In this document: positions 625-25,047 of the stretch, piece by piece
Position numbering within the stretch: the stretch's first letter is position 1
Layout of the letters: each line of letters begins with the position of its first letter
NCBI GenBank assembly: GCA_009782385.1
Contig: WRJE01000010.1
Location: 1 to 44,339 of the forward strand
Source of the DNA: Oscillospiraceae bacterium
GTDB lineage: Bacteria; Bacillota; Clostridia; Oscillospirales; UBA929
Direction: 5' to 3'
DNA length: 44,339 nucleotides
Program-made: the position numbers and the translations under genes
The notes under the pieces: generated by a model
The model's input: only the letters and a program-made list of their open reading frames with translations
What the model was told of the DNA's origin: nothing
Database searches by the model: none

Positions 625-667
625 CTTTAGGTAAATCTAAATTGAAAGAAAGATGGAGGTATACAAA

Positions 668-1654
668 ATGCAAATACCAAACAAATTTGACAGCAATGTA
701 GATCAACTTATACGCATGATGGATAAAAAACAGGTTGACTATGATGGAGCCATTCAGCGGGGTAAAGTGTGGGACAAAAAGAGAAAAAGCAGATTAATTC
801 GTTCTCTTTTACTCAAGAGGGCTGTAGGTGTGTTCATCTTCAATAAAATTGGAGATAATGCATATGAGGCACTAGATGGTAAACAGCGTAGTACGGCAAT
901 TTATGAATTCATTAAGGGAGATTTTGCTCTTCATCCAAGTTTTTTACCAATTACAGATGATAGTGGAAATGAAACTCCAATCGCCAAGCGCAAATTTACA
1001 GAGTTGCACGAAGATTTGCAGAGCAGGATTACTAGCTATGTTCTTGAAATTCGCTTTTATAATAATTTGAGTCAAGACGAAAAACTGGACATATTTGAAG
1101 ACATTAACAACGGTAGACCTGTTACAGCAAGTGACATTACTAGAACTAAAATAAAAAGTCGTGGATTGTTTGAGTCATTGGCAAAGCATGATGCTATACG
1201 TGGTACTCTTTCTATTGCAAATCGGAACAAAAAAATGGATGAAGACTTTGCAACCAAGGTGTGGCTGATGTGTTATAGCGGCTCTGAGAGCTTGCTCAAT
1301 AAGGATACTGCACCGATTTTATCCTCTACGGAAGTAACCGAAGATCAAGTTCAAGGGCTTACTAAAATTCTTGATTATTTGAAGGTTCTAATCAAGACTT
1401 TTGGTAAGGACAAAAAAATGGCAAGGAAAATGAAAAGCATAACCCACTTTATGTCTCTTGGTTATATGGCACATATAGCAATAAGCAAAAATTTAAGTGC
1501 AGAGAAATTTGCTGAAAAAGCCATAAAGTTTTTTAGCGGCGAGGGAAACAAGGCTTCAATTAGCGATAAATATAATTTTGCTTGTGGAGCAGGAACAGCA
1601 AAAGCCGATAAAGTTAGCATTAGAAAATCAGAGATGGAAAAAGCCTTGAAATAA
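668..1654 (+). CDS. DUF262 (GmrS N-domain-like) protein
   Basis: The 328-residue protein has the ParB-like DUF262 fold signature: the DGKQRSTAIYEFIKGDF stretch near residue 70 corresponds to the DGQQR motif that binds and hydrolyses nucleotide in GmrSD/SspE-type defence enzymes. A second conserved patch, IFEDINNGRPVTASD, follows near residue 145. There is no DUF1524 (HNH) C-terminal half, so this is a single-domain form, not a full GmrSD restriction enzyme. An ATG at 653 exists, but GGAGG at 654-658 sits nine bases before the ATG at 668, which I take as the start. It stands alone upstream of a MazF toxin and ends at a good hairpin terminator. A role in phage or foreign-DNA defence is inferred from the family only. 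Confidence 0.75.
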   Translation: MQIPNKFDSNVDQLIRMMDKKQVDYDGAIQRGKVWDKKRKSRLIRSLLLKRAVGVFIFNKIGDNAYEALDGKQRSTAIYEFIKGDFALHPSFLPITDDSGNETPIAKRKFTELHEDLQSRITSYVLEIRFYNNLSQDEKLDIFEDINNGRPVTASDITRTKIKSRGLFESLAKHDAIRGTLSIANRNKKMDEDFATKVWLMCYSGSESLLNKDTAPILSSTEVTEDQVQGLTKILDYLKVLIKTFGKDKKMARKMKSITHFMSLGYMAHIAISKNLSAEKFAEKAIKFFSGEGNKASISDKYNFACGAGTAKADKVSIRKSEMEKALK

Positions 1655-1788: not shown

Positions 1789-2196
1789 ATGGAACAAATA
1801 ATAAGAGGAGATATATACTATGCTGACTTATCTGGTTGGAGAGGAGCAGAGCAAGGTACTGACCAAGGCGACTTTCGCCCTGTGCTTGTGGTTCAGAATG
1901 ATGTAGGCAATAAATATTCTCCAACAACACAAATAGCTCCACTGACATCGAAGACTACAAAAAGGAGCTTACCAACACATGTGAGATTTGATAGGGGAAT
2001 TGGAGGACTAAGAGAGCCATCTACTGTATTGATGGAACAGCTAAGAACAATAGACAAAAGCAGACTAAAATACTATGTAGGTCATATTGATAATAATAAG
2101 ATGTATGAGGTTGATTGTGCTATTGCTACCAGTTTGTTTCCTTTTAACGTCGCATCTGCTTTTAGTCAGATGCTTGCTAATGCGATTCCTGCATGA
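1789..2196 (+). CDS. mazF: MazF/PemK-family mRNA interferase toxin
   Basis: At 135 residues it has the PemK/MazF beta-barrel signatures: RGDIYYADLSG at the N-terminus, the RPVLVVQND strand, and TQIAPLTSK and STVLMEQLRTIDK further on. These match the Bacillota MazF/NdoA branch, which cleaves single-stranded RNA at short sequences. The usual MazE-type antitoxin gene is not present just upstream: the preceding gene is the DUF262 protein and a terminator plus a private promoter separate them. Either the antitoxin is one of the small downstream genes, or it was lost, or this is a solitary PemK of the kind common in Clostridia elements. Confidence 0.85.
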   Translation: MEQIIRGDIYYADLSGWRGAEQGTDQGDFRPVLVVQNDVGNKYSPTTQIAPLTSKTTKRSLPTHVRFDRGIGGLREPSTVLMEQLRTIDKSRLKYYVGHIDNNKMYEVDCAIATSLFPFNVASAFSQMLANAIPA

Positions 2197-3934: not shown

Positions 3935-3991
3935 AGAACTCTGTGATTTGCAGACCTATGAATTGTTATATGAAAACAAATGATGATTCAG

Positions 3992-4287
3992 TGAACTACC
4001 CACGCGCCTAAAGGCACGGGGCTTCTGAGTAACAATAGAAGCCAGTTTACCAGACTAAGCTGACGAAAGTACAGCTACGATAGAATAGTTATGACACCCT
4101 CGGTTGACGCACCAGACCGTTGCAATGTCGTGTATATTTAAGTAGAGTTGAAGGGTAAGGCTCGGTGATATACATATGTAAGCTATTTTTATCTTTGTCG
4201 AGGTGATGTCGGAAAAACATCGTGGTAACAGTGATGTGGAGTACGCACAACCGCAGTAATGCGGAATTATCCGAAAGGAGAAACACA
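3992..4287 (+). ncRNA. omegaRNA (HEARO) of the IscB system
   Basis: IscB nucleases are guided by an omegaRNA encoded immediately upstream, and the 300 bases before the TTG start contain no open frame of note but many pairings: the TAAA-loop hairpin at the left end, gcttct/agaagc (4021-4042), and several GC-rich stems up to the ribosome site. By the family rule the guide is the short 5' extension copied from DNA flanking the left end, here roughly 3975-3991. The boundaries are inferred from the genes on either side, not from a covariance model. Confidence 0.7.
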
Positions 4288-5532
4288 TTGGTAGTATATG
4301 TAATTAGTAAAGATGGAAAACCGCTGATGCCAACAACACCCGCAAGAGCAAAGAAAAAGTTAAGGTCAGGCAAAGCTAAATGTATACGCAGAACTCCGTT
4401 TACAATCAAGCTCACCTACGATAGCAAAGAGTTTACACAACCACTCACACATGGAATAGACACAGGTTCATCAATTATTGGAAGCGCAGTAGTTGACAAT
4501 AATGGAGAAGTGGTGTACTTATCAGAGATAGAGATACGTAATGACATCACAGACAAAATGAAACAACGTGCAAAATACCGTAGGAACAGACGCAACCGCA
4601 AGACTCGTTACCGTAAGGCTCGGTGGCAACATAGAAAGAACAGCATTAGGAACGATAGGTTTTCACCAACTATGACAAGTAAAATTAACTCACATTTGAA
4701 AGAGATTCGTTTCGTGAAGTCAATTTTGCCGATAACACACTTGATATTGGAGACAGCAACATTTGATCCACACGCATTGAAAAATCCTGCGGTATTGCAG
4801 AACAAGTGGTTGTACCAAAAAGGAATTAACTACGGCTTTGCTAACACTAAGGCTTTTGTTTTAGACAGAGATAGTTACACCTGTCAATACTGCGGAGGTA
4901 AAACTAAAGACAGTAGGCTTCATATTCATCACATAACATTTAGAATGAACGGTGGCTCTGACGAAGCAGATAATTTGATAACTCTATGTAAAACCTGTCA
5001 CGACAAACTACACGATGGATTGATTCAACTCAAAGGTGGTAAGCACAAGGGGCAACTTAGGCACGCCACACAGATGAACTCAATCAGACAGCAATTGTTA
5101 AGGCAGCTTAACTGTGATGAGACGTTTGGCTTTATCACAAAGGAACACCGACAACTAATGAGTCTTCCAAAAGAACATCATATGGATGCTGTCGCGGTTG
5201 CAAGTCAAGGTAATGGCGTAACATTCAAAACAAGTGTTATGCTTCAAAAGAAGTGCTTGGCAGATGGTGATTACCAAAAAACCAAAGGCATTCGTAGTGA
5301 ACAGCCGATAACCACTGATAAGATTTGTGGATTTAAGAAGTTTGACAAAGTTAGATACGGTGGCATTGATTACTTCATAAAAGGTAGAATGTCTACGGGA
5401 TACGCAATACTGATGAACATACACGGAGAAAAAGTCGCAATGAAACCAATTCCAAAGCTCGATAAGATGAAGAGAATAAGCGCAAGGAAATCATGGATTA
5501 TACAAGCAGAAACCATTCGAAATATTGTTTGA
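4288..5532 (+). CDS. iscB: IscB RNA-guided endonuclease (RuvC + HNH)
   Basis: Length is 414 residues with a TTG start; AAAGGAG lies seven bases upstream, and the product then begins MVVYVISKDGKPLMP, the PLMP/RRXRR domain specific to IscB. In order: PLMP domain (1-50), RuvC-I with Asp58 in GIDTGS, an arginine-rich bridge helix (about 91-115), RuvC-II with Glu155 in LILETATFD, an HNH domain (196-240) with Cys199/202/234/237 and His214-His215 and Asn229, RuvC-III with Asp300 in EHHMDAVAVA, and a C-terminal beta-rich domain (about 345-405) of the type that reads the target-adjacent motif. All nuclease residues seem intact. The family cuts double-stranded DNA using the omegaRNA, and is thought to help retain the transposon at the donor site. 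The last 40 bases overlap tnpA. Confidence 0.93.
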   Translation: MVVYVISKDGKPLMPTTPARAKKKLRSGKAKCIRRTPFTIKLTYDSKEFTQPLTHGIDTGSSIIGSAVVDNNGEVVYLSEIEIRNDITDKMKQRAKYRRNRRNRKTRYRKARWQHRKNSIRNDRFSPTMTSKINSHLKEIRFVKSILPITHLILETATFDPHALKNPAVLQNKWLYQKGINYGFANTKAFVLDRDSYTCQYCGGKTKDSRLHIHHITFRMNGGSDEADNLITLCKTCHDKLHDGLIQLKGGKHKGQLRHATQMNSIRQQLLRQLNCDETFGFITKEHRQLMSLPKEHHMDAVAVASQGNGVTFKTSVMLQKKCLADGDYQKTKGIRSEQPITTDKICGFKKFDKVRYGGIDYFIKGRMSTGYAILMNIHGEKVAMKPIPKLDKMKRISARKSWIIQAETIRNIV

Positions 5533-5888
5533 TGTGTCATTTGATATTTGTGTGTAAGTACAGAAAGAAGTTGTTATCTGTATTTGGAACACAGGTTAAA
5601 AAGTTGCTATGTGACATAGCTGAAGAAAACGATATTGAAATTATGAAAATGGAAGTTGACAAAGACCATATTCATATCCTGATAAGCTATTCGTCTACAA
5701 AATCAATACTTGAGATTGTTAGATTATTTAAACAGATTTCAACTTATAGGATTTGGAGGCAATATGATAATGACAAGTATTTAAGAAAGCATTTCTGGAA
5801 AGAACAAACATTTTGGAGTGATGGATATTTTGCTTGTAGCATAGGTCAAGTGAGTAAGGATATTATTGAAAAATATATACAAACATAG
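5493..5888 (+). CDS. tnpA: IS200/IS605 Y1 transposase TnpA
   Basis: The protein is 131 residues, the usual length for this family. The HUH metal-binding motif is His59-Ile-His61 in KDHIHILIS, and the catalytic tyrosine is Tyr128 in IIEKYIQ near the C-terminus, with the conserved FWSDGYFACSIG before it. The enzyme nicks and joins single-stranded transposon ends as a dimer. The start overlaps the last 40 bases of iscB in another frame, with AAGGA five bases upstream, so translation is probably coupled. Presence of an intact tnpA beside iscB is notable because many iscB elements lack it and rely on a transposase in trans. Confidence 0.92.
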   Translation: MDYTSRNHSKYCLMCHLIFVCKYRKKLLSVFGTQVKKLLCDIAEENDIEIMKMEVDKDHIHILISYSSTKSILEIVRLFKQISTYRIWRQYDNDKYLRKHFWKEQTFWSDGYFACSIGQVSKDIIEKYIQT

Positions 5889-5903
5889 GGGTAGGCAATT
5901 CAT

Positions 5904-5925
5904 CCGCTCCCCTAAAGGGAAGCGG
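5904..5925. other. Right-end subterminal hairpin of the insertion sequence
   Basis: Arms ccgct and agcgg, with partial continuation of the stem, enclose a TAAA-containing loop. It mirrors the left-end hairpin and is the structure TnpA would bind at the right end. Confidence 0.7.
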
Positions 5926-5940
5926 TTTTCTTGCCTTGAC

Positions 5941-6330
5941 TTTATAAATGAGATTGTAAATGAGGAGGAAGCTATATATGATGAACATGAATCGCCAGAA
6001 CCAATATTTCTCGGAGAGTTTACGTCAACAGGATATTGTCCATGTGAAAAATGTTGTGGCAAGTGGAGCAATCCTTCTAATCCACTTACAGCAATTGGAA
6101 ATCTAGCAGTTGAGGGAGTCACAATAGGCGCAGACTGGGATACGCTATCACCAGGAACTATGTTATACATAGAAGGCATAGGAGAGCGTGTCGTTCAGGA
6201 TAAACTGGCAAAATGGATTGTAGAGCGTTATGATGGTAAGATACTTGATTTGTATTATGAAAGTCATGAGGATGCGTGGAATCATGGAAGACAAATAGTA
6301 AGCGTCTGGCTGTTGCCAGATGAAATATAG
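5941..6330 (+). CDS. 3D-domain protein, 5' end lost to the insertion sequence
   Basis: The frame encodes a 3D domain (named for three conserved aspartates), as in the C-terminus of YabE/Rpf-like and phage cell-wall hydrolases: GYCPCEKCCGKW, then GADWDTLSPGT, VVQDKLAKW and KILDLYYES supply the expected Asp residues and the YCPC knuckle, and the tail HGRQIVSVWLLPDEI is the last strand. The frame is open leftward into the insertion sequence without any ATG or ribosome site of its own, so the signal peptide and true start have been removed; the fragment at 3863-3988 may be the other half. The 3' end runs into AGGAGG of the next gene. Probably non-functional unless translated by readthrough. Confidence 0.7.
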   Translation, partial: FINEIVNEEEAIYDEHESPEPIFLGEFTSTGYCPCEKCCGKWSNPSNPLTAIGNLAVEGVTIGADWDTLSPGTMLYIEGIGERVVQDKLAKWIVERYDGKILDLYYESHEDAWNHGRQIVSVWLLPDEI

Positions 6331-9493: not shown

Positions 9494-11011
9494 ATGGAAA
9501 CTGCATATGATATAAAATTTGTTGCTGTATATTTGCGTAAGTCTCGCGCAGAACAAGAAAACGAATTAGAGAAGCATAGGACGATTTTAACTGACCTATG
9601 CAATAGGAATAATTTCAAATATGTTGAGTATGCTGAAATAGGAACTTCAGATTCAATAGATATGCGTCCTAAAATGACACAGCTTCTCAAAGACGTTGAT
9701 AGTGGCTTGTACGATGCAGTATGTGTTGTAGATTACGATAGGCTCGGTAGAGGTGATCTTGGTGAACAAGATAGGATTAAAAAGGCGTTTCAAAAATCAT
9801 CTACGCTCATTATTACCCCAGAAAAAATATATGACTTGAATAATGATTTAGATGATACATATGCTGACTTTAAGGGTTTATTTGCAAGACAAGAGTACAA
9901 AATGATAACAAAACGTCTTAGACAAGGGAAAAAAATTGGAGCTCGCAGAGGCGATTGGACAAATGGAACACCATCATTCCCATATGAATATGAAAGGTAT
10001 GAGGGGAAATATAATCAAAAAGGATTGGTTGTAAACGATGAGCTTTATAAAGTCTACCGTGAAATAATATCAATGGCTATTGATGGCATGAGTCCAAATA
10101 AAATTTCAATAACTTTAAATCAAAGGGGGATTACAACAAAAAAGGGAAACAATTGGAGTGGTGCTACAATTCAAAGATTATTGTTGGATGAAACGCAACT
10201 AGGTAAAATCATTAGCAACAAATCAAAAGGAGATGGACATAAAAATAGAAAACCAAATGCAATTAAATTAAGATTACTTCCAAGGGAAGAATGGATAATA
10301 GTTGAAAATTGTCACGAAGCAGTAAAAACACAGTATGAACACGATATCATATCAAAACTTATTAAAAGCAGAAACTTAAATCCTAATAGAGCAATGCCAC
10401 AAACATATTCGTTTTCCGGTATAGTCAGATGCGGCAAATGTGGTAGGTGCATGACTTTTGGAAAAGATTTACGTAATAAATATAGATTGATAATGAAGTC
10501 ATGTGTTCGTCAAGATCACGTTGGAAACAAATGTAAAAATGGCGGTATATGGGTAAGCGAATTTGAACAGATGGTGTTAAATGAGATACAATCATTTTTA
10601 GATAATTATGCTATTCAAGAAGCTGAAATGAGTGTTGTTAACTCTGATTTGTTGAATAAAGTTATTAATGAAAAAGAAGTTCAAAAAGAAAAATACATAA
10701 AGGCATTAGATGTTGTAGACGATGGTTACGAGTTGGGTGATTACTCAAGAGATGTTTGGCTGAATAAAAAGCAAAAATGGAATGAAAAGATTAGAAAGGT
10801 AGAGAGCGACATTGTAGAACTTAAGTATCAGTTAAATAGTATCCCTAAAATATCATATGAAATACGACAACAGAATATTGAAAAATTCTTTAATAATATT
10901 GAGCAAGTTACAACACCGAAAGAAAGAAATGATTTATATAGAACAATTATTGAACGCATTATATGGATTAAGGATGGTGATGCCATTAAAATCGAGATAG
11001 TATATAAGTAG
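9494..11011 (+). CDS. Large serine recombinase (integrase)
   Basis: The 505-residue protein has the resolvase catalytic domain at the N-terminus, with nucleophile Ser17 in VYLRKSRAE and the DRLGRGD segment near residue 85. The recombinase domain (about 165-270, with ISMAIDGMSPNKISITLNQRG) follows, then a zinc ribbon (CGKCGRCMTFG ... CVRQDHVGNKCKNGG, about 310-355) and a C-terminal coiled coil (about 390-460). This is the phiC31/TnpX-type layout used for site-specific integration and excision. The gene ends 28 bases before the yyaL junction, so the right attachment site is immediately downstream. All key motifs appear intact. Confidence 0.95.
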   Translation: METAYDIKFVAVYLRKSRAEQENELEKHRTILTDLCNRNNFKYVEYAEIGTSDSIDMRPKMTQLLKDVDSGLYDAVCVVDYDRLGRGDLGEQDRIKKAFQKSSTLIITPEKIYDLNNDLDDTYADFKGLFARQEYKMITKRLRQGKKIGARRGDWTNGTPSFPYEYERYEGKYNQKGLVVNDELYKVYREIISMAIDGMSPNKISITLNQRGITTKKGNNWSGATIQRLLLDETQLGKIISNKSKGDGHKNRKPNAIKLRLLPREEWIIVENCHEAVKTQYEHDIISKLIKSRNLNPNRAMPQTYSFSGIVRCGKCGRCMTFGKDLRNKYRLIMKSCVRQDHVGNKCKNGGIWVSEFEQMVLNEIQSFLDNYAIQEAEMSVVNSDLLNKVINEKEVQKEKYIKALDVVDDGYELGDYSRDVWLNKKQKWNEKIRKVESDIVELKYQLNSIPKISYEIRQQNIEKFFNNIEQVTTPKERNDLYRTIIERIIWIKDGDAIKIEIVYK

Positions 11012-11059
11012 AGCGCTTACTACAGCATTTAGGATATATGCCATTGGTGTCATGTCATG
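11012..11059. other. Right attachment junction in the yyaL gene
   Basis: Reading back from the yyaL frame, the codons tgc-cat-tgg-tgt-cat-gtc-atg (11039-11059) give C-H-W-C-H-V-M, identical to the YyaL family active-site motif. Homologues have Thr just before the first Cys; here ATA (Ile) stands there, and an in-frame TAG (11030-11032) comes two codons before that. Homology to the gene therefore stops at or just before 11039, which places the crossover there. Confidence 0.7.
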
Positions 11060-12688
11060 GCTCACGAGAGCTTTGAGGACGCGGAAGTCGCCGAAGTATT
11101 GAATCAAGGCTATGTGAGCATAAAGGCGGACAAGGAGGAACGCCCTGACATCGACAGCGTATACATGAGCGTCTGCCAAATGCTTACCGGCTCGGGCGGC
11201 TGGCCTTTGACCGTAATTATGGATTGCTCCGGCAAGCCTTTTTTTGCGGGGACATATTTCCCCAAAACAGGCCGTTACCGAATGGCGGGGCTTACCGATA
11301 TACTAACGGTAATTCTTGATAAATGGCACACGGAAAGAGATACTTTGCTCCGTTCCGCCGCCCGTATTACCGGACAGCTCGGTGTGCGTGAAAAAACCGC
11401 AAACCCCGCCGTATCGCCTGAGCTGCTCTGCGAAAAGGCGGTTGAATATTTCAAAGCAACATTTGACTTGAGATACGGCGGTTTTGGGCGCGCGCCCAAG
11501 TTTCCGTCACCGCATAATCTGCTTTTTCTGTTGGAGTATCATAAACTGAACGGAGATAAAAACAGCCTTTTCATGGCGGAGAAGACACTGGAGCAGATGG
11601 CGAGGGGCGGCATATTCGACCATATCGGTTTTGGGTTTTCGCGGTATTCCACAGACGAGAAGTGGCTCGCGCCGCATTTTGAAAAAATGCTGTATGATAA
11701 CGCTCTGTTGGTATCGGCATACGCGAAAGCGTATCAAATCACAGGGAATCCGCTGTATAAAAGCATTGCCGAGAAGACACTGCTCTATATCCGCCGTGAG
11801 ATGACGCATCCGGGCGGAGGTTTCTATTCGGCTCAGGATGCCGACAGTGACGGTGTTGAGGGCAAATACTATGTATTTACGCCGGACGAAATTATTTTCG
11901 TACTGGGCAAAGACATGGGAGAAGCGTTCTGCGAATACTATGACATTACCGATAAAGGCAACTTTGAGGGAAAGAATATTCCTAATTTGATTCATAATTC
12001 AAAGTTTGACGAACGGTTTGCCGATGCGTCGGCGAAACTTTATGATTATCGTTTGACAAGAACGGCTCTCCACAGGGATGAAAAGATTCTGACCTCATGG
12101 AACGCGCTGATGATTGCCGCGTTTGCCGATGCCGCCGCCGCGTTTGGGAACGATGAATACTTGAATATGGCAAAACGCGCTATGGATTTTATTGAGACAC
12201 ATCTATATGAAAACGGGCGGCTTTTGGCGAGCTATTGTGACGGTCGGCGCAGTGAATGGGGATTTATTGACGACTACGCTTTTACTATATACGCGCTGTT
12301 AAGATTATATCAAACCACGGCGGACAACAGATATTTTGCGTTTGCCGAAACTCTGGCAGATACGGCTATAACGGACTTTTTCGACTTTGATGATGGCGGT
12401 TTTTATCTCTACGGAAGCGCGGGAGAAGCATTGATAACGCGCCCAAAGGAGTGTTATGACGGGGCTATGCCGTCAGGCAACTCGGTCATGGCGATGAACT
12501 TGGAAATGTTGTATGCTATAAACGGCAGCCGCGAAACAGAAAACGTTCTGCTCAAGCAGAATGCCTATATGAACGCCGTTGCGGCGGACGCGCCCGCCGG
12601 GCATACGTTTTATTTGTTGAGCAAGATGGGAAACAAAGATTTGTCGTTTGGGTGCAAGGATGGTGTTTGCGGTGTGAGGTGGAAATGA
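11057..12688 (+). CDS. YyaL/DUF255 thioredoxin-fold protein, 5'-truncated by integration
   Basis: The 543-residue frame matches the YyaL (SPATA20-like, DUF255) family from its CHWCHVMAHESFED motif onward; full proteins are about 670-690 residues, so roughly the first 50 are missing. Visible family blocks include GGWPLTVIMD, GGFGRAPKFPSPHNLLFLLE, GIFDHIGFGFSRYSTDEKW and FYSAQDADSDGVEGKYYVF, and the six-hairpin-like C-terminal part is complete. The first ATG left is inside the motif itself and has no good ribosome site. While the element is integrated the protein is probably not made; excision would restore the gene. The exact activity of the family is not established. Confidence 0.85.
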   Translation: MAHESFEDAEVAEVLNQGYVSIKADKEERPDIDSVYMSVCQMLTGSGGWPLTVIMDCSGKPFFAGTYFPKTGRYRMAGLTDILTVILDKWHTERDTLLRSAARITGQLGVREKTANPAVSPELLCEKAVEYFKATFDLRYGGFGRAPKFPSPHNLLFLLEYHKLNGDKNSLFMAEKTLEQMARGGIFDHIGFGFSRYSTDEKWLAPHFEKMLYDNALLVSAYAKAYQITGNPLYKSIAEKTLLYIRREMTHPGGGFYSAQDADSDGVEGKYYVFTPDEIIFVLGKDMGEAFCEYYDITDKGNFEGKNIPNLIHNSKFDERFADASAKLYDYRLTRTALHRDEKILTSWNALMIAAFADAAAAFGNDEYLNMAKRAMDFIETHLYENGRLLASYCDGRRSEWGFIDDYAFTIYALLRLYQTTADNRYFAFAETLADTAITDFFDFDDGGFYLYGSAGEALITRPKECYDGAMPSGNSVMAMNLEMLYAINGSRETENVLLKQNAYMNAVAADAPAGHTFYLLSKMGNKDLSFGCKDGVCGVRWK

Positions 12689-18855: not shown

Positions 18856-21800
18856 TCACTCCACCAATCCCGCCTGCCTTAACAGCTTCAACGCTAACGC
18901 CGCCGTTTCGGCGCGGGTGATGTTATCAAGCGGTGCTATTCTGCCGCCGCCTTTACCTGTGAACAAGCCCGAACCTACATTCCACATCGCTGCGTCTAAC
19001 GCCCACGAACTCACGCTTCCCGCGTCGATGAAGGCTTCGAGACTGCCTGCCGCTCCCTCGTATCCGGCAATTTGCGCCGCTCTCCATATCAATATCATCG
19101 CTTCCTGACGGGTCATCTGTCTGTCGGGCGCGAATCTGCCGTCTCCAACGCCGCCCACAAGTCCGTACTCATACGCCTTGCCAACCGCTCCCGCGTACCA
19201 CACGTCCGCCGATATATCACTGAACACCGTACCGTTGCCGTTTTCGGGCAGACCCAACGCTCTGATGATAATCGAAACAAATTCCGCACAGGTTACGGCG
19301 CGGTCGCCGCCATACAACCCCTCGCCGATACTCGTGATTATTCCACGGCTGCCCGCTTCGTTGACATCGGCTTCATACCATTTACCCGCCGCGTCTGAAA
19401 ACACGACATCATTATAAATCAGCGCGTAGACGGAGTTTGTCAAGCTGCTGACGGTTGCGTACCATTTGCCGTTTTCTTGATACACATAGGTCGGCACATG
19501 ACGCATCGTGCCGTCCGGCTCGATTACAACCGCCGTTGTGATTTTCGCCGCCTGTTCCGCCGTAATTTCTACCGTGCGGCTGACGAACTGCGTAAATTCG
19601 GTGACTTCGTAGGTTTTGTTACTGTATTCCGCCGTAACCGTAAACTGCATGGGCGGTAATACCAAATCCGTTCCGTATTCCGTCATCGCTTGCGCCACCA
19701 ACGCCCGCGTTTCTTCATTTACGGTTGTGGTTATCGTGACCGTAACGGGGACTTGGGCGGTATTGTACGCGCCGAGTGCTTCCATAATTGCAGAAGTGTC
19801 AATCGCCGCCGTGTTGATGTTATACACTACATTTTCGACCTGCACGGAAAGGGTTATTTCCTTTTCCGCCATATCGTCCACGTTTTTGACGACAAAGACG
19901 GCTTCGGCTGTTTCGGTATCCTTATTTGTCGGGATGATAACCGTTACGTTATCGCTCGCGTTTTTAATTTCGCTGTTAATTACCGTTTGATTTACAAGCA
20001 CGGTGGTTCGGTCGTCTTCCACGGTCACTTTGCCCGCTTCGGTTTTATTGCCGTCTACAAACACAACGGAATCGCTTGCTCCGGGAGTTGGTGACGGACT
20101 GGGACTAGGTGAGGGACTAGGTGAAGGACCGGGTGACGGTGATGGATTTGAGCCGGGGGATGGACCGGGGTTGGGCGGGGGTGTCGGAACAGGCGGCGGC
20201 ACAATGCCGCCGCTTCCGGCGGAGCTTGTCGCCGGAAACACCGCCGTTATAACACCGCTGTCCGCTGAGTTGCTGACCGTTGTCGCGCCCGACACGGTGA
20301 AGTAGTTCGCCGTTACGCCTGTGAGCGTATAGCCCGTTTTCGGCGTTAGGGTGATTGTCGCGGTATAGACCGTGCTTGCCGCGAATGTACTTGAAACGGT
20401 CGGCGACCATGCAATCGTGCCTGTATACTGCGCCGTTTCGGTGATTGCCGTTTTCGGCGTTGCGTCCCTGACGGGCGCGGTCACGCCGCCGATTGCCGCG
20501 ATGTCGATTGGTTCGGGAACTCCAAATATCACCTCGATGTCATGCGCCGCCGCGATACCGTTTATTGTATATGTTGAACCATTTCCTTTTGAAATGCCGT
20601 TATCTTTCCACTCTTTCACTTGATACCCCGATTTGGGCTCGGCGGTAAATGTCACGTTGTTTGCGGCAGTCGTTTCTATTTCCGGGATTCTGCCGTTTGA
20701 ACCTGCCGAAAGAGTGAACTCTTTGCCGTTTATTTCAAGCGTTCCGACCGCGCCGCCGCCATTCCCTTTGCCGATAGCCAGCAAGACGTTGTCGCCCGCC
20801 GTGGCTGTTACCTTGGCATTGCTGATTTCCACTTCGCCGCCATCGCCGTACATACCGCCGCCGATACCCGCGCCGTCAATGCCGCCGTTGGCTGTGACCG
20901 TGCCGCCGTTGATGGTGATTGTGCCGCCATCGCCTCCGCTCATGCCGCTGCCCGCGCCGCCGCCGATACCCGCGCCGTAGTCGCCGCCTGTGGCTGTAAC
21001 ATTGCCGCCGTCGATGTTGATTATGCCGCCCGCACTGAACGTACCGCCGCCTATACCCGCGCCGTTGCTGCCGCCTGTAGCATTGACCGTGCCGCCGTTG
21101 ATGTTGATTTCGCCGCCCGCGCCTTGACCGCCGCCGCCGATACCCGCGCCTTGACCGCCGCCTGCGGCTTCCACCGTGCCGCCGTTGATGGTGATTGTGC
21201 CGCCCATGCCGCTGTTGCCGCCGCCGATACCCGCGCCGCCCATGCCGCCTGCGGCTGTGACATTGCCGCCGTTGATGGTGATTGTGCCGCCTTTATTATT
21301 GGACCCGTTCATACCGCCGATACCCGCGTTACCGAAGCCGTCGGCGGTGGCGGTCAGTTTGCCCGTGCCGCCGGACTGCGCCCAAATGGTTAGGCTGTTG
21401 CCATCGCTTACGCCGATGCCGCCGTCAATTTCTACATTCGCGCCGTCCGCGAGAATTAGGTTAACATTGCCGCTGACGGTTATCCGCTGTGTAACGTTCA
21501 GCGTTCCCGCCGGGACATAATACCAACCTGTTCCACTTGTGTTCATAGCCGATGTACCCGCTGTAATCGCGGTTGCGTCAACGGGGGTTTGCGAAGCTCC
21601 TGCCGCGTTGACATATGGAATTGGCGGGGGAGGAGGGATTTCAAACGTCACCCCAACGGTGTGGTCATCATCAATCCCGTTGATGGTATATGTTAAAGCA
21701 TTTCCCTTTGAGCCGCTATCTGTCCATTCATTCACTTGATACCCCGAATTGGGCGCGGCGGTAAATGTTACATCGTTTGCGGCAGTCGTTTCTATTTTTG

Positions 21801-22836
21801 AGATTCTGCCGTTTGGACCTGCCGAAAGAGTGACGTTATTGCCGCTTATTTCAAGCGTTCCGGCCGCGCCGCTATCGGATCCCGCGCCGATAGCCAACGG
21901 GACATAATCGTCTGCCGTGGCTGTTACCTCGGCATTGCTGATTTTTACCGCGCCGCCCGCGCCGAGCACGCCGCCGCCAATGCCCGCGCCGGCGATGCCG
22001 CCTGTAGCATTGACCGTGCCGCCGTTGATGTTGATTATGCCGCCCGCGCCGATGCTGCCGCCGCCGATACCTGCGCTTTCGTTGCCGCCTGCGGCAGTGA
22101 CCGTGCCGCCGTTGATGTTGATTGTGCCGCCCGCGCCGTTGATGCCGCCGCCGATGCCCGCGCCGCCGCCGATGCTGTCGCTGCCGCCTATGGCTGTGAC
22201 CGTGCCGCCGTTAATGGTGATTGTGCCGCCCGCGCCGTAGGCACCGCCGCCGATACCCGCGCCGCAGATGCTGCCTGTGGCATTGACCGTGCCGCCGTTG
22301 ATGTTGATTGTGCCGCCCTCGCCGCCGCCGATACCTGCGCTTTCATCGCCGCCTGTAGCTGTAACATCGCCGCCGTTGATGTTGATTGTGCCGCCCACGC
22401 CCGAGTCGATGCCGATACCCGCGTAGTTGCCGCCGCCGCTGGCGGTCAGTTTGCCCATGCTCCCGCCTGTGGACTGCGCGTAAATGTTGAGGGTGTTGCC
22501 GCTGCTTACACCGATGCCGCCTGTAATGGTGACATCCGCGCCGTCCGCGAGAATTAGGTTGACATCGCCGGTGACGGTTATCCGCTGTGAAACGGTCGGC
22601 GTTCCCGCCGGGACATAATACCAACCGCCTGTTACACTTTCGCTCATGGCCGATGTACCCGCTTCAATCTCGGTTGCGGTCACAGAACCTTGCGAAACCC
22701 CTGCCGCGTCAACGTAGGAAACGCTGTCCGTTGCCGCAAATGCCGACAGCGTAAATGTCGGCGCAAGCGAGAGCGTCAGTACCACGGTCAGCAGTACCGC
22801 CATCGCGCGGGAAAAAGAAGAAAACGAATTTTTCAT
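18856..22836 (-). CDS. SLH-anchored surface protein with duplicated Gly-rich repeats
   Basis: This protein is 1326 residues. The start at MKNSFSSFSRAMAVLL has AAAGGGGT nine bases upstream and gives a clear signal peptide ending about ALSAFAA; earlier in-frame starts lack this. Two homologous blocks follow, each beginning with a segment like WYYVPAGT...QRITVTGDVNLILADGA and then several 20-26-residue repeats of the type GGTITINGGTVTATGG..GAGIGGG, which should form a beta-helix. InlB-like repeats end each block (SGYQVNEWTDSG). A proline-serine spacer (SPSPGPSPSPSPS) and an alpha/beta region come next, then SLH domains (about the last 190 residues, with VFSDISADVWYAGAVGKAYE) that hold it to the cell wall. 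Likely an adhesin or polysaccharide-binding protein. Confidence 0.88.
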   Translation of the reverse strand: MKNSFSSFSRAMAVLLTVVLTLSLAPTFTLSAFAATDSVSYVDAAGVSQGSVTATEIEAGTSAMSESVTGGWYYVPAGTPTVSQRITVTGDVNLILADGADVTITGGIGVSSGNTLNIYAQSTGGSMGKLTASGGGNYAGIGIDSGVGGTININGGDVTATGGDESAGIGGGEGGTININGGTVNATGSICGAGIGGGAYGAGGTITINGGTVTAIGGSDSIGGGAGIGGGINGAGGTININGGTVTAAGGNESAGIGGGSIGAGGIININGGTVNATGGIAGAGIGGGVLGAGGAVKISNAEVTATADDYVPLAIGAGSDSGAAGTLEISGNNVTLSAGPNGRISKIETTAANDVTFTAAPNSGYQVNEWTDSGSKGNALTYTINGIDDDHTVGVTFEIPPPPPIPYVNAAGASQTPVDATAITAGTSAMNTSGTGWYYVPAGTLNVTQRITVSGNVNLILADGANVEIDGGIGVSDGNSLTIWAQSGGTGKLTATADGFGNAGIGGMNGSNNKGGTITINGGNVTAAGGMGGAGIGGGNSGMGGTITINGGTVEAAGGGQGAGIGGGGQGAGGEININGGTVNATGGSNGAGIGGGTFSAGGIINIDGGNVTATGGDYGAGIGGGAGSGMSGGDGGTITINGGTVTANGGIDGAGIGGGMYGDGGEVEISNAKVTATAGDNVLLAIGKGNGGGAVGTLEINGKEFTLSAGSNGRIPEIETTAANNVTFTAEPKSGYQVKEWKDNGISKGNGSTYTINGIAAAHDIEVIFGVPEPIDIAAIGGVTAPVRDATPKTAITETAQYTGTIAWSPTVSSTFAASTVYTATITLTPKTGYTLTGVTANYFTVSGATTVSNSADSGVITAVFPATSSAGSGGIVPPPVPTPPPNPGPSPGSNPSPSPGPSPSPSPSPSPSPTPGASDSVVFVDGNKTEAGKVTVEDDRTTVLVNQTVINSEIKNASDNVTVIIPTNKDTETAEAVFVVKNVDDMAEKEITLSVQVENVVYNINTAAIDTSAIMEALGAYNTAQVPVTVTITTTVNEETRALVAQAMTEYGTDLVLPPMQFTVTAEYSNKTYEVTEFTQFVSRTVEITAEQAAKITTAVVIEPDGTMRHVPTYVYQENGKWYATVSSLTNSVYALIYNDVVFSDAAGKWYEADVNEAGSRGIITSIGEGLYGGDRAVTCAEFVSIIIRALGLPENGNGTVFSDISADVWYAGAVGKAYEYGLVGGVGDGRFAPDRQMTRQEAMILIWRAAQIAGYEGAAGSLEAFIDAGSVSSWALDAAMWNVGSGLFTGKGGGRIAPLDNITRAETAALALKLLRQAGLVE
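20700..22440. repeat. Degenerate tandem coding repeats in the surface-protein gene
   Basis: On the plus strand the motif gccgccgatacccgcgcc and variants recur many times at about 60-81-base spacing, in two blocks separated by non-repetitive sequence around 21,350-21,850. They encode the GGTITINGG/GAGIGGG protein repeats. The copies differ in codons, so the array is under protein-level rather than DNA-level selection, but it is a good substrate for slippage and recombination. Confidence 0.75.
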
Positions 22837-22888
22837 ATGTAAAATACCCCTTTCTAAATGGCTTTGATTATAGGTCAAGCTGCCAACG

Positions 22889-24976
22889 TTATCGCACCTT
22901 TTGCCTTTGACTGACAGCTTTTTTGTTGGGAGCTTTCCACGCGGTGAGTTTTCCCTTATAATCATCCAGAGCAACCACCACGACTTTGCCGCTTTTATTA
23001 TAAATCAGCTGTCCCGCTTCGAGCGTTATATTTCCGGACACTTCAGTCGGACTGATTCCCAAATCCTCACTCCCTCCGGCGAAAAGCATATCGCCGTTTT
23101 TGAGCCTGATTTTCCCGCTCTTGATACTATAATTGGGCGGTTTACCCATGCTTTTGACGCTGGCGCGGTGAATCATTTTCGCCCTAACCTTTTTGGGCTT
23201 GCTTGCCGCTGTGTACTCTGTGTCACTCAATTTTTCCGGTGCTGTTCTGACATAATAGTAAAACACAACGACCTTGCCGCCGGGAGAGCTTTCGACCGGG
23301 ATACCAATACGTTGACCGGGGATATCCGCACAGTATGACAGCGGCGTTTTTGCCCCGCTCCGTTCGATACACCCGGCGTTGCCGTCATGGACACAGCGGC
23401 AATAAAACTTACCGAAACCACGCTTGCTGATTTCTTTCGGATCTCTCGCCGATACCGCGATTTCAATCCCTGCGTTGTAGGGAGTCGTACCCTCCTTGTC
23501 TGATTTTTGATTCAGCATCCATTCTCCCGCCGTCTTACCCGACCAATCGGCGGCAAGAGTATAGTTAATCAGCGCGTAGGGGGCTTTGGGGCGTTTGTTG
23601 ATTTGGGGGAATGTGACGATAACACCGTCCGCGTTTTTTATGTGCAAGGTCATGCCCTTGTCCAGTAATTTGGGAAACCCTTTTTTTACATCAAAGTTTT
23701 TGAATGTAGTTTGCTTTACTTTTTGCCATTTGAACCCGCCGTCAAGGCTGTACTCCTTGATAATAAAGTCCTCGGGCAGTACGATAATCTCGCTCCGCAG
23801 GTTGATGTGGTATTCGTTCGCCATTTCGTACCCGTCAATAGAACCGGGGACGATAATGTCGGGATAGTCATAGTCAATACCCGAAAATCGGTCATCGGCA
23901 GGGTCGTCCGGTCGGGGGTCGAACACCAATTCTTCTTTCCACTTCGCGTATAGAGTGATGTCGGCGGTTACAGTGTTACTGCCGAAGTTCCATACATCTG
24001 TCAGAGCCGCGTCCTTGAACCACGCCACAAAACTGTATCCTTCCTTTTTGGTCGCGGGGGCGCAGATTGTAATATCATGGGCAACATCGGTCATCGGAGC
24101 AATCTCCGTCCCGCCGTTGGTGTCGAAGGTTACGGTATAAGACGGTTTAGAAGGAGGCTCAGGTGTGGGGGAGGGCTCAGGTGTTGGTTCGGGCGTGGGT
24201 GAGGGTTCGGGTGTCGATTCCCCGGGGGTCACATAACCGCATTTCGCGCAAACCTCGCCGGGGTCACTCGGAGAACAGGTTTCATTTGTCTCGCCGCAGC
24301 CGTTTGTGCAGTCATGTGTGCCGTCATCGTTTGATACCCAACTATGTCCTACTGCCAAATCTAACTCCTCGCCGCACCTAGTGCAAGTCTGCGCCGTTGT
24401 ACAAGTCGCCGAAGAACCGGGCGTGTGACTGTCGCAAGCCGATGGTGTCATTTCAATAATGTCCGGTTCTGTCGGTGTCACAGCGATTGAGGTGAATACG
24501 GGTTTATCATAGAAGAAGACAGTGCCTATATCCCCGGACACGCTTATCAATAAAAACCCTTCGGCAAAAATGCAGTCAATACGCGCCTTCGGAGAAACCA
24601 CCATAGAACCTCCCGGAAGACCGTCGGCGTAAAAGTCAATACGAAAGAACGGGTTTTCGACCGTGGCATCGGCAGCCCATGACAGCTTGAAGTATCCTAA
24701 CGGATTAGCGGCTACCGGCACATTAACTCTGGAATCGGTTAAAGGATTCTTAAAGCTGCTAAGTGTCATCTTGCCGCCGGCCGACACATTCCGGAAATAC
24801 GCCGGACTGCGCGAACAATCGCGCACCTGCTCCACCGAGAACTCGATATTAATTATCGGCAAATCCGGCAACTGTCCGCCCGCCGCCACTGCCGTGAGAG
24901 GGAGGGCGGGCAGCAGTGCGAGCGTTAGTACCACGGTCAGCAGTACCGCCATAAATCTACTAAAATTTTTATTCAC
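22889..24976 (-). CDS. Exported protein with Cys-rich motif and InlB-type repeat
   Basis: This protein is 695 residues from a GTG start (MNKNFSRFMAVLLTVVLTLA), nine bases after AAAGGGGG; a signal peptide with cleavage near ALPLTAVAAG is clear. Around residue 185-250 lies a cysteine-rich segment (CTTAQTCTRCGEELD, TNGCGETNETCSP, CAKCGYVTPGE). Next is a proline-glutamate linker (EPSPTPEPTPEPSPTPEP) and one InlB/Flg_new repeat (TVTFDTNGGTEIAPM ... ITLYAKWKEE). The remaining 350 residues are not recognised and show no SLH or LPXTG anchor. It precedes the SLH protein by 52 bases in the same direction and shares a very similar signal peptide, so the two are likely coexpressed and related in function. 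Confidence 0.8.
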   Translation of the reverse strand: MNKNFSRFMAVLLTVVLTLALLPALPLTAVAAGGQLPDLPIINIEFSVEQVRDCSRSPAYFRNVSAGGKMTLSSFKNPLTDSRVNVPVAANPLGYFKLSWAADATVENPFFRIDFYADGLPGGSMVVSPKARIDCIFAEGFLLISVSGDIGTVFFYDKPVFTSIAVTPTEPDIIEMTPSACDSHTPGSSATCTTAQTCTRCGEELDLAVGHSWVSNDDGTHDCTNGCGETNETCSPSDPGEVCAKCGYVTPGESTPEPSPTPEPTPEPSPTPEPPSKPSYTVTFDTNGGTEIAPMTDVAHDITICAPATKKEGYSFVAWFKDAALTDVWNFGSNTVTADITLYAKWKEELVFDPRPDDPADDRFSGIDYDYPDIIVPGSIDGYEMANEYHINLRSEIIVLPEDFIIKEYSLDGGFKWQKVKQTTFKNFDVKKGFPKLLDKGMTLHIKNADGVIVTFPQINKRPKAPYALINYTLAADWSGKTAGEWMLNQKSDKEGTTPYNAGIEIAVSARDPKEISKRGFGKFYCRCVHDGNAGCIERSGAKTPLSYCADIPGQRIGIPVESSPGGKVVVFYYYVRTAPEKLSDTEYTAASKPKKVRAKMIHRASVKSMGKPPNYSIKSGKIRLKNGDMLFAGGSEDLGISPTEVSGNITLEAGQLIYNKSGKVVVVALDDYKGKLTAWKAPNKKAVSQRQKVR

Positions 24977-24985
24977 AAGTATGTA

Positions 24986-25047
24986 CCCCCTTTGAACGGT
25001 TCTACCGCATACTATCCCAGTATAATGTGCGGTCATTCAAAAGGGGG
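24986..25047 (-). promoter_or_regulatory. Long inverted repeat that would sequester the ribosome site
   Basis: Upstream of the exported-protein gene, CCCCCTTTTGAA (mRNA sense, from 25047) can pair with TTCAAAGGGGG (to 24986) with a single bulged base. The second arm contains the AAAGGGGG ribosome site. The 39-base loop has smaller stems of its own (ccgca/tgcgg and tact/agta). In the mRNA this would hide the ribosome site until melted or bound. Confidence 0.55.

What the first reader, a model, noticed from the sequence alone, without database searches (positions are those of the whole stretch)
3990..5940. Complete autonomous IscB transposon with omegaRNA and intact TnpA
PLMP, RuvC-I/II/III, bridge helix and HNH residues are all present, the omegaRNA region is upstream, and an intact HUH/Y1 transposase overlaps the nuclease gene by 40 bases. 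Natural iscB elements with an active-looking transposase in cis and translational overlap are less common than solitary ones. The small 414-residue nuclease could be a compact RNA-guided enzyme.
Basis: partly seen in the sequence, partly recalled or inferred. Interest (0 to 1): 0.65.

Follow-up and report, generated by a model that had tools for sequence, protein, structure and literature searches.

The report
Prophage-borne IscB element, crippled transposase
This is a small jumping gene inside a bacterial prophage that carries an RNA-guided DNA-cutting enzyme of a known family (IscB, the ancestor of Cas9) and its guide RNA, both apparently intact, but its own 'jumping' enzyme has lost an essential residue to a premature stop, so it is an ordinary member of a known kind that can probably no longer move by itself.

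Summary
A full-length HEARO/omegaRNA (3991-4210), a 414-residue IscB (TTG start, 4288-5532) and a Y1/HUH TnpA ORF (5493-5888) lie in one element, with a 40-nt iscB/tnpA overlap. The pseudoknot pairs (CACC/GGTG) and every mapped IscB catalytic residue are present.

"Intact TnpA" and "autonomous" do not hold. TnpA ends ...EKYIQT-TAG-GGG-TAG. In 60 of 61 related TnpA loci the same place reads YxxxQG. The premature TAG sits on the codon of the third metal-ligand Gln (Q131 of IS608), reported as essential for transposition. This copy is probably transposase-dead.

Ends were set from relatives. Two copies of a related element at different sites, and an exact empty site for one of them, show it runs from GTGAACT/GTCAACT to the base before ATAAA. 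By homology this element is 3991-5943, with guide AACAAATGATGATTCA (3975-3990) and target-adjacent motif ATAAA (5944-5948).

It is single-copy, sits in a serine-integrase prophage-like region, and is absent from 195 relatives. Among 29 loci of this IscB clade only 5 keep an apparently intact cis TnpA. IscB stays under purifying selection (dN/dS about 0.1). It is a new member of a known kind.

The parts
3975..3990 (+). predicted guide, left-flank host DNA AACAAATGATGATTCA
   Evidence: Flank directly 5' of the element. Guide position known from OgeuIscB (PMC9640706). The corresponding flank of relative L135 lies next to ATAAA in its empty site.
3991..4210 (+). omegaRNA scaffold (HEARO, RF02033); position 3991 is the left end of the element
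   Evidence: cmscan 104.9 bits, full model. 67 pairs incl. pseudoknot, 32 pairs with changes on both sides in 9 relatives, 0/500 shuffles as good.
4110..4205 (+). omegaRNA pseudoknot, CACC 4110-4113 with GGTG 4202-4205
   Evidence: Covaries as CACC/GGTG, CATC/GATG and CAAC/GTTG in relatives.
4288..5532 (+). iscB, 414 aa, TTG start: PLMP, RuvC-I/II/III, bridge helix, HNH, C-terminal TAM-interacting region
   Evidence: Pfam, phmmer to OgeuIscB E 2.6e-42, AF2 model matching IscB structures at E down to 1.8e-26, catalytic residues conserved in all compared relatives where the site is readable.
5493..5888 (+). tnpA, Y1/HUH transposase, 131 aa, C-terminally truncated by nonsense; overlaps iscB by 40 nt
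   Evidence: Pfam Y1_Tnp; alignment A4.
5886..5888 (+). premature TAG at the codon of the conserved metal-ligand Gln (IS608 Q131 equivalent); GGG 5889-5891 and TAG 5892-5894 match the relatives' Gly and stop
   Evidence: 60 of 61 related loci keep Gln here; relatives end ...YIQSQG* or ...YIQEQG*.
5893..5936 (-). right-end subterminal hairpin (TnpA recognition structure)
   Evidence: DNA fold -12.8 kcal/mol, z -3.56; same hairpin before NTAAA in most relatives.
5943..5943 (+). right end of element (last base)
   Evidence: By homology with L132/L135 and the exact empty site of L135 in L172, L173 and L175.
5944..5948 (+). ATAAA, target-adjacent motif retained in the right flank
   Evidence: NTAAA at this place in most relatives; NTAAA is the measured TAM of OrufIscB (PMC13180657).
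5944..6330 (+). interrupted or abutted 3D-domain phage gene (true start unclear)
   Evidence: Relatives in viral contigs and phages. Joining 3990 to 5944 keeps one open frame into the gene (read by hand).
9494..11011 (+). large serine recombinase of the prophage-like element that carries the IscB element
   Evidence: PHROG integrase 267 bits, Pfam Resolvase/Recombinase.

Best explanation
This is an ISC element, an IscB-encoding IS200/IS605-type element (3991-5943), inserted 5' of an ATAAA in a prophage-like region. How it works: the omegaRNA, reading into the left flank for its guide, loads IscB. IscB then cuts the element-free version of this site (AACAAATGATGATTCA next to ATAAA). After excision, or when a sibling phage lacks the element, repair from an element-bearing copy restores or copies the element (RNA-guided homing/retention). 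TnpA of this family peels out and pastes the single strand. This copy's TnpA lost its metal-ligand Gln and final Gly to a nonsense codon and is predicted inactive, so the element would move only with a TnpA supplied in trans. Shown by sequence: parts, ends (by homology), omegaRNA structure, the nonsense codon, and the empty site and trans-mobilised copies in relatives. Inferred: RNP activity, homing, loss of TnpA activity.
For: omegaRNA. IscB family, catalytic residues and fold. TnpA identity and lesion. Gln131 is a metal ligand and essential in vivo (PMC6006769; PMC5934647). TAG serves as a stop at 9 of 33 ORF ends counted in the window. Ends, TAM and empty site. Single copy and absent from relatives. 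Purifying selection on IscB after tnpA loss, and tnpA-deleted copies at different sites. Gene-drive/retention mechanism described for IS605 nucleases (PMC11870625).
Against: No expression or activity data. A single-base assembly error in this draft genome (104 contigs) could mimic the nonsense codon. Low amber read-through could still make some TnpA. No empty site was found for the window's own insertion. The guide's only perfect match in the genome is its own locus.
Confidence: 0.85

Rival explanations
1. A fully active autonomous IscB transposon: the truncated TnpA works without its Gln, or the TAG is an assembly error.
For: HUH, Tyr and the rest of TnpA are intact; only the last two residues are missing; ends and hairpin are intact.
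Against: Gln is kept in 60 of 61 loci, binds the metal and is essential in IS608. Single copy in the genome.
Confidence: 0.1
2. A decayed relic with no function, nuclease included.
For: tnpA is damaged; many relatives show tnpA remnants.
Against: IscB ORF, all catalytic residues and the omegaRNA pseudoknot are intact; IscB dN/dS is about 0.1 in relatives lacking functional tnpA.
Confidence: 0.08
3. A host- or phage-domesticated IscB used for another purpose (defence, or phage-phage exclusion as its main selected role).
For: It lies in a prophage-like region; guides of such elements match sibling phages lacking the insert (for L135).
Against: The guide is still only the flanking DNA of the insertion; transposon ends are intact; no conserved position across relatives (different flanks).
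Confidence: 0.1

Closest known systems
ISC elements (IscB-encoding IS200/IS605-type transposons) with RF02033 HEARO/omegaRNA
   Same: omegaRNA upstream, IscB with PLMP/RuvC/HNH, hairpinned ends, NTAAA target-adjacent motif, no target duplication (shown for L135).
   Different: This copy has a nonsense codon in tnpA; it lies in a prophage-like region.
OgeuIscB (7xht) and OrufIscB
   Same: Catalytic residues align; structure match E down to 1.8e-26; predicted TAM ATAAA fits OrufIscB NTAAA.
   Different: 414 aa against about 492-496; shorter between bridge helix and RuvC-II and in the C-terminal region.
IS608 / ISDra2 TnpA (Y1 HUH transposases)
   Same: Same Pfam family, HUH and catalytic Tyr aligned.
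   Different: Lacks the Y+4 Gln (Q131 of IS608).
L127 (IMGVR_UViG_3300009826_000002), nearest full-length relative found
   Same: IscB 78% identical; same architecture and overlap.
   Different: Its tnpA is frameshifted instead of ended by a nonsense codon.

Membership tests
IscB (OMEGA nuclease) | PLMP domain, split RuvC, bridge helix, HNH with catalytic residues | tested here: met
   D58, E155, H215, H297, D300 match Ogeu D61, E193, H247, H340, D343.
IscB (OMEGA nuclease) | cognate omegaRNA upstream with nexus pseudoknot | tested here: met
IscB (OMEGA nuclease) | IscB fold | tested here: met
   AF2 model pLDDT 77; the top Foldseek hits are IscB structures.
IscB (OMEGA nuclease) | RNA-guided DNA cleavage | not testable with these tools
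   Needs biochemistry.
ISC / IS200-IS605-type element | defined ends, subterminal hairpins, no target duplication, motif next to one end | tested here: met
   Ends by homology with L132/L135 and the exact empty site of L135; hairpin. Own empty site not found.
Active Y1 HUH transposase (TnpA IS200) | HUH motif and catalytic Tyr | tested here: met
   H59, H61, Y128.
Active Y1 HUH transposase (TnpA IS200) | Gln four residues after Tyr (metal ligand, essential in vivo) | tested here: not met
   TAG at that codon (PMC6006769, PMC5934647).
Autonomous ISC transposon | functional transposase in cis | tested here: not met
   Same lesion; activity itself was not assayed. 'Works like' an ISC element still holds; 'autonomous' does not, unless the TAG is an error.

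The most novel reading that the evidence does not exclude
The element is kept in phages as an RNA-guided homing element that no longer needs its own transposase: IscB cuts the empty allele in sibling phages and spreads the insert by repair, while TnpA is lost again and again. A more extreme form is that rare amber read-through, if it inserts Gln, makes a little full TnpA and so throttles transposition.
Probability: 0.2. Interest if true: 0.5.

Novelty: new member of a known kind. Interest (0 to 1): 0.27.

Why it matters
It corrects an over-reading ("intact, autonomous") and gives a clean example of how solitary IscB systems arise: tnpA is lost by point nonsense, frameshift or deletion while omegaRNA, IscB and both ends persist. 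The defined guide, motif and ends make the retention/homing idea directly testable. As a compact nuclease it is unremarkable: 414 aa is typical for its clade.

Tried and rejected
TAG recoded as Gln in this genome: rejected, because TAG ends 9 of 33 ORFs counted in the window, the serine recombinase included. Other copies in the genome to define the ends: none. Empty site of the window's own insertion: no exact match in viral contigs and no perfect match elsewhere in its genome; the same test for L132 also failed, for L135 it worked. Close relatives of the IscB in 195 related genomes: only one distant IscB, about 40% identical; the other hits are short HNH matches. Another TnpA in the genome that could act in trans: one very weak Y1 hit, 21-23 bits. 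Unusual compactness: rejected by comparison with relatives. Meers et al. 2023 was not held in the library. Host taxonomy was not resolved.

Full report
OBSERVATION. RF02033 (HEARO, the omegaRNA of IscB) matches 3991-4210 over its full model at 104.9 bits. The ORF from TTG 4288 to 5532 encodes 414 residues. It hits Pfam RRXRR (174 bits) and HNH (50 bits), and OgeuIscB in the PDB at E 2.6e-42. The OgeuIscB catalytic residues D61, E193, H247, H340 and D343 (PMC9640706) align with D58, E155, H215, H297 and D300. These residues are kept in all compared relatives in which the site can be read; two loci are cut by a contig edge and one is masked at the HNH site. An AlphaFold2 model (pLDDT 77) matches IscB structures first (8csz E 1.8e-26). 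TnpA (5493-5888) hits Y1_Tnp at 110 bits and overlaps iscB by exactly 40 nt.

THE TRANSPOSASE IS NOT INTACT. The reading is ...IIEKYIQT-TAG-GGG-TAG. In 61 related TnpA loci, some near-identical to one another, 60 keep a Gln four residues after the catalytic Tyr, nearly always as a terminal YxxxQG (alignment). The nearest forms read YIQSQG* or YIQEQG*. The window therefore has a stop exactly at the Gln codon, followed by the Gly and stop codons that the relatives use. This Gln is Q131 of IS608: a ligand of the catalytic metal ion with the two His, and essential for transposition in vivo (PMC6006769; PMC5934647). TAG is a working stop here: it ends 9 of the 33 ORFs counted in the window, the serine recombinase included. 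I infer that this TnpA is inactive. A draft-genome base error remains possible.

OMEGARNA. On nine relatives the structure with the pseudoknot has 67 pairs. 94.8% of cells are paired and 32 pairs show changes on both sides; no shuffle of 500 does as well, and sliding partners by one to three columns collapses it. The pseudoknot (4110-4113 with 4202-4205) appears as CACC/GGTG, CATC/GATG and CAAC/GTTG. That is compensatory change, and the window's version is intact.

ENDS, GUIDE, MOTIF. L132 and L135 are two copies of one related element in different flanks, 98% identical from the GTCAACT at the start of the HEARO match to the TTATAAA at the right. For L135 the exact empty site occurs in L172, L173 and L175 (L174 is cut shortly after the junction): left flank directly joined to ATAAA, with no duplication, and the boundary cannot be shifted without breaking the match. 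By homology the window element is 3991-5943. Its guide is the left flank (3975-3990, AACAAATGATGATTCA) and its motif is ATAAA (5944-5948). Most right ends among the relatives show a hairpin and then NTAAA, which is the measured motif of OrufIscB (PMC13180657). The window's own empty site was not found.

CONTEXT. The element is single-copy, and no close IscB exists in 195 relatives. It lies in a low-GC stretch (about 29-41% against mostly 42-60% beyond position 11000). That stretch has a large serine recombinase (9494-11011) next to a split DUF255 thioredoxin-like gene, whose profile match begins only at position 48 of 163. It also has a 3D-domain phage gene directly 3' of the insert. This is a prophage-like element; its left end is off the contig.

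TNPA LOSS IN THE CLADE. I classified 29 loci whose IscB is 56% or more identical, or whose contig edge leaves only the IscB tail (by hand, some pairs closely related). Only five have an apparently intact cis TnpA: L036, L041, L075, L079 and L191. The rest lack tnpA, hold remnants, or are broken: the window by nonsense; L127 by frameshifts; L189 by truncation; L035 by His to Pro in HUH; L034, L037, L180, L181, L182, L190 and L219 by deletion with short remnants. tnpA-less L192 and L194 share one element in different flanks (94% identical), so it moved in trans. L132 and L135 likewise share an internal tnpA deletion. IscB dN/dS in these pairs is about 0.10 (0.14 for the same-site pair L181/L182). 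So the nuclease and ends outlast the transposase. This agrees with the published rarity of cis TnpA (PMC9755519).

HOW IT WORKS. Best supported: IscB-omegaRNA cuts the element-free site and repair keeps or spreads the element, as described for IS605-family nucleases (PMC11870625). Transposition of this copy would need a TnpA in trans; the genome's only other candidate is a very weak hit. RNP activity and homing are inferred, not shown.

VERDICT. A new member of a known kind (ISC element), correctly spotted but over-read as autonomous. Interest is modest.

Noticed in passing
L111:1180-1290: Another natural TnpA has a nonsense codon (TAA) between the catalytic Tyr and the Gln (...QYI*NQG*), parallel to the window's lesion.
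   Followed up: partly
L035:6209-6601: The TnpA of a Niallia IscB element has lost the first His of HUH (KEPIH), and its right-end hairpin is missing.
   Followed up: partly
L192/L194 and L132/L135: tnpA-less or tnpA-deleted IscB elements occur at two different sites each, indicating movement in trans, with IscB under purifying selection.
   Followed up: yes
L190:4230-4275: The IscB C-terminus is fused in frame to the last codons of a deleted tnpA (...IEKYIQKQG*).
   Followed up: no
window 9494-11100: A large serine recombinase adjoins a split DUF255 thioredoxin-like gene near 11036, a likely attachment site; the N-terminal half of that gene was not found in the genome.
   Followed up: partly
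window 1789-2196: MazF/PemK-like toxin gene in the prophage-like region; no antitoxin was looked for.
   Followed up: no
window 653-1654: GmrSD_N (DUF262) protein in the prophage-like region, possibly defence-related.
   Followed up: no
window 18856-25036: Two long, repeat-rich putative surface proteins on the minus strand with a locally high GC content (about 0.50-0.60).
   Followed up: no
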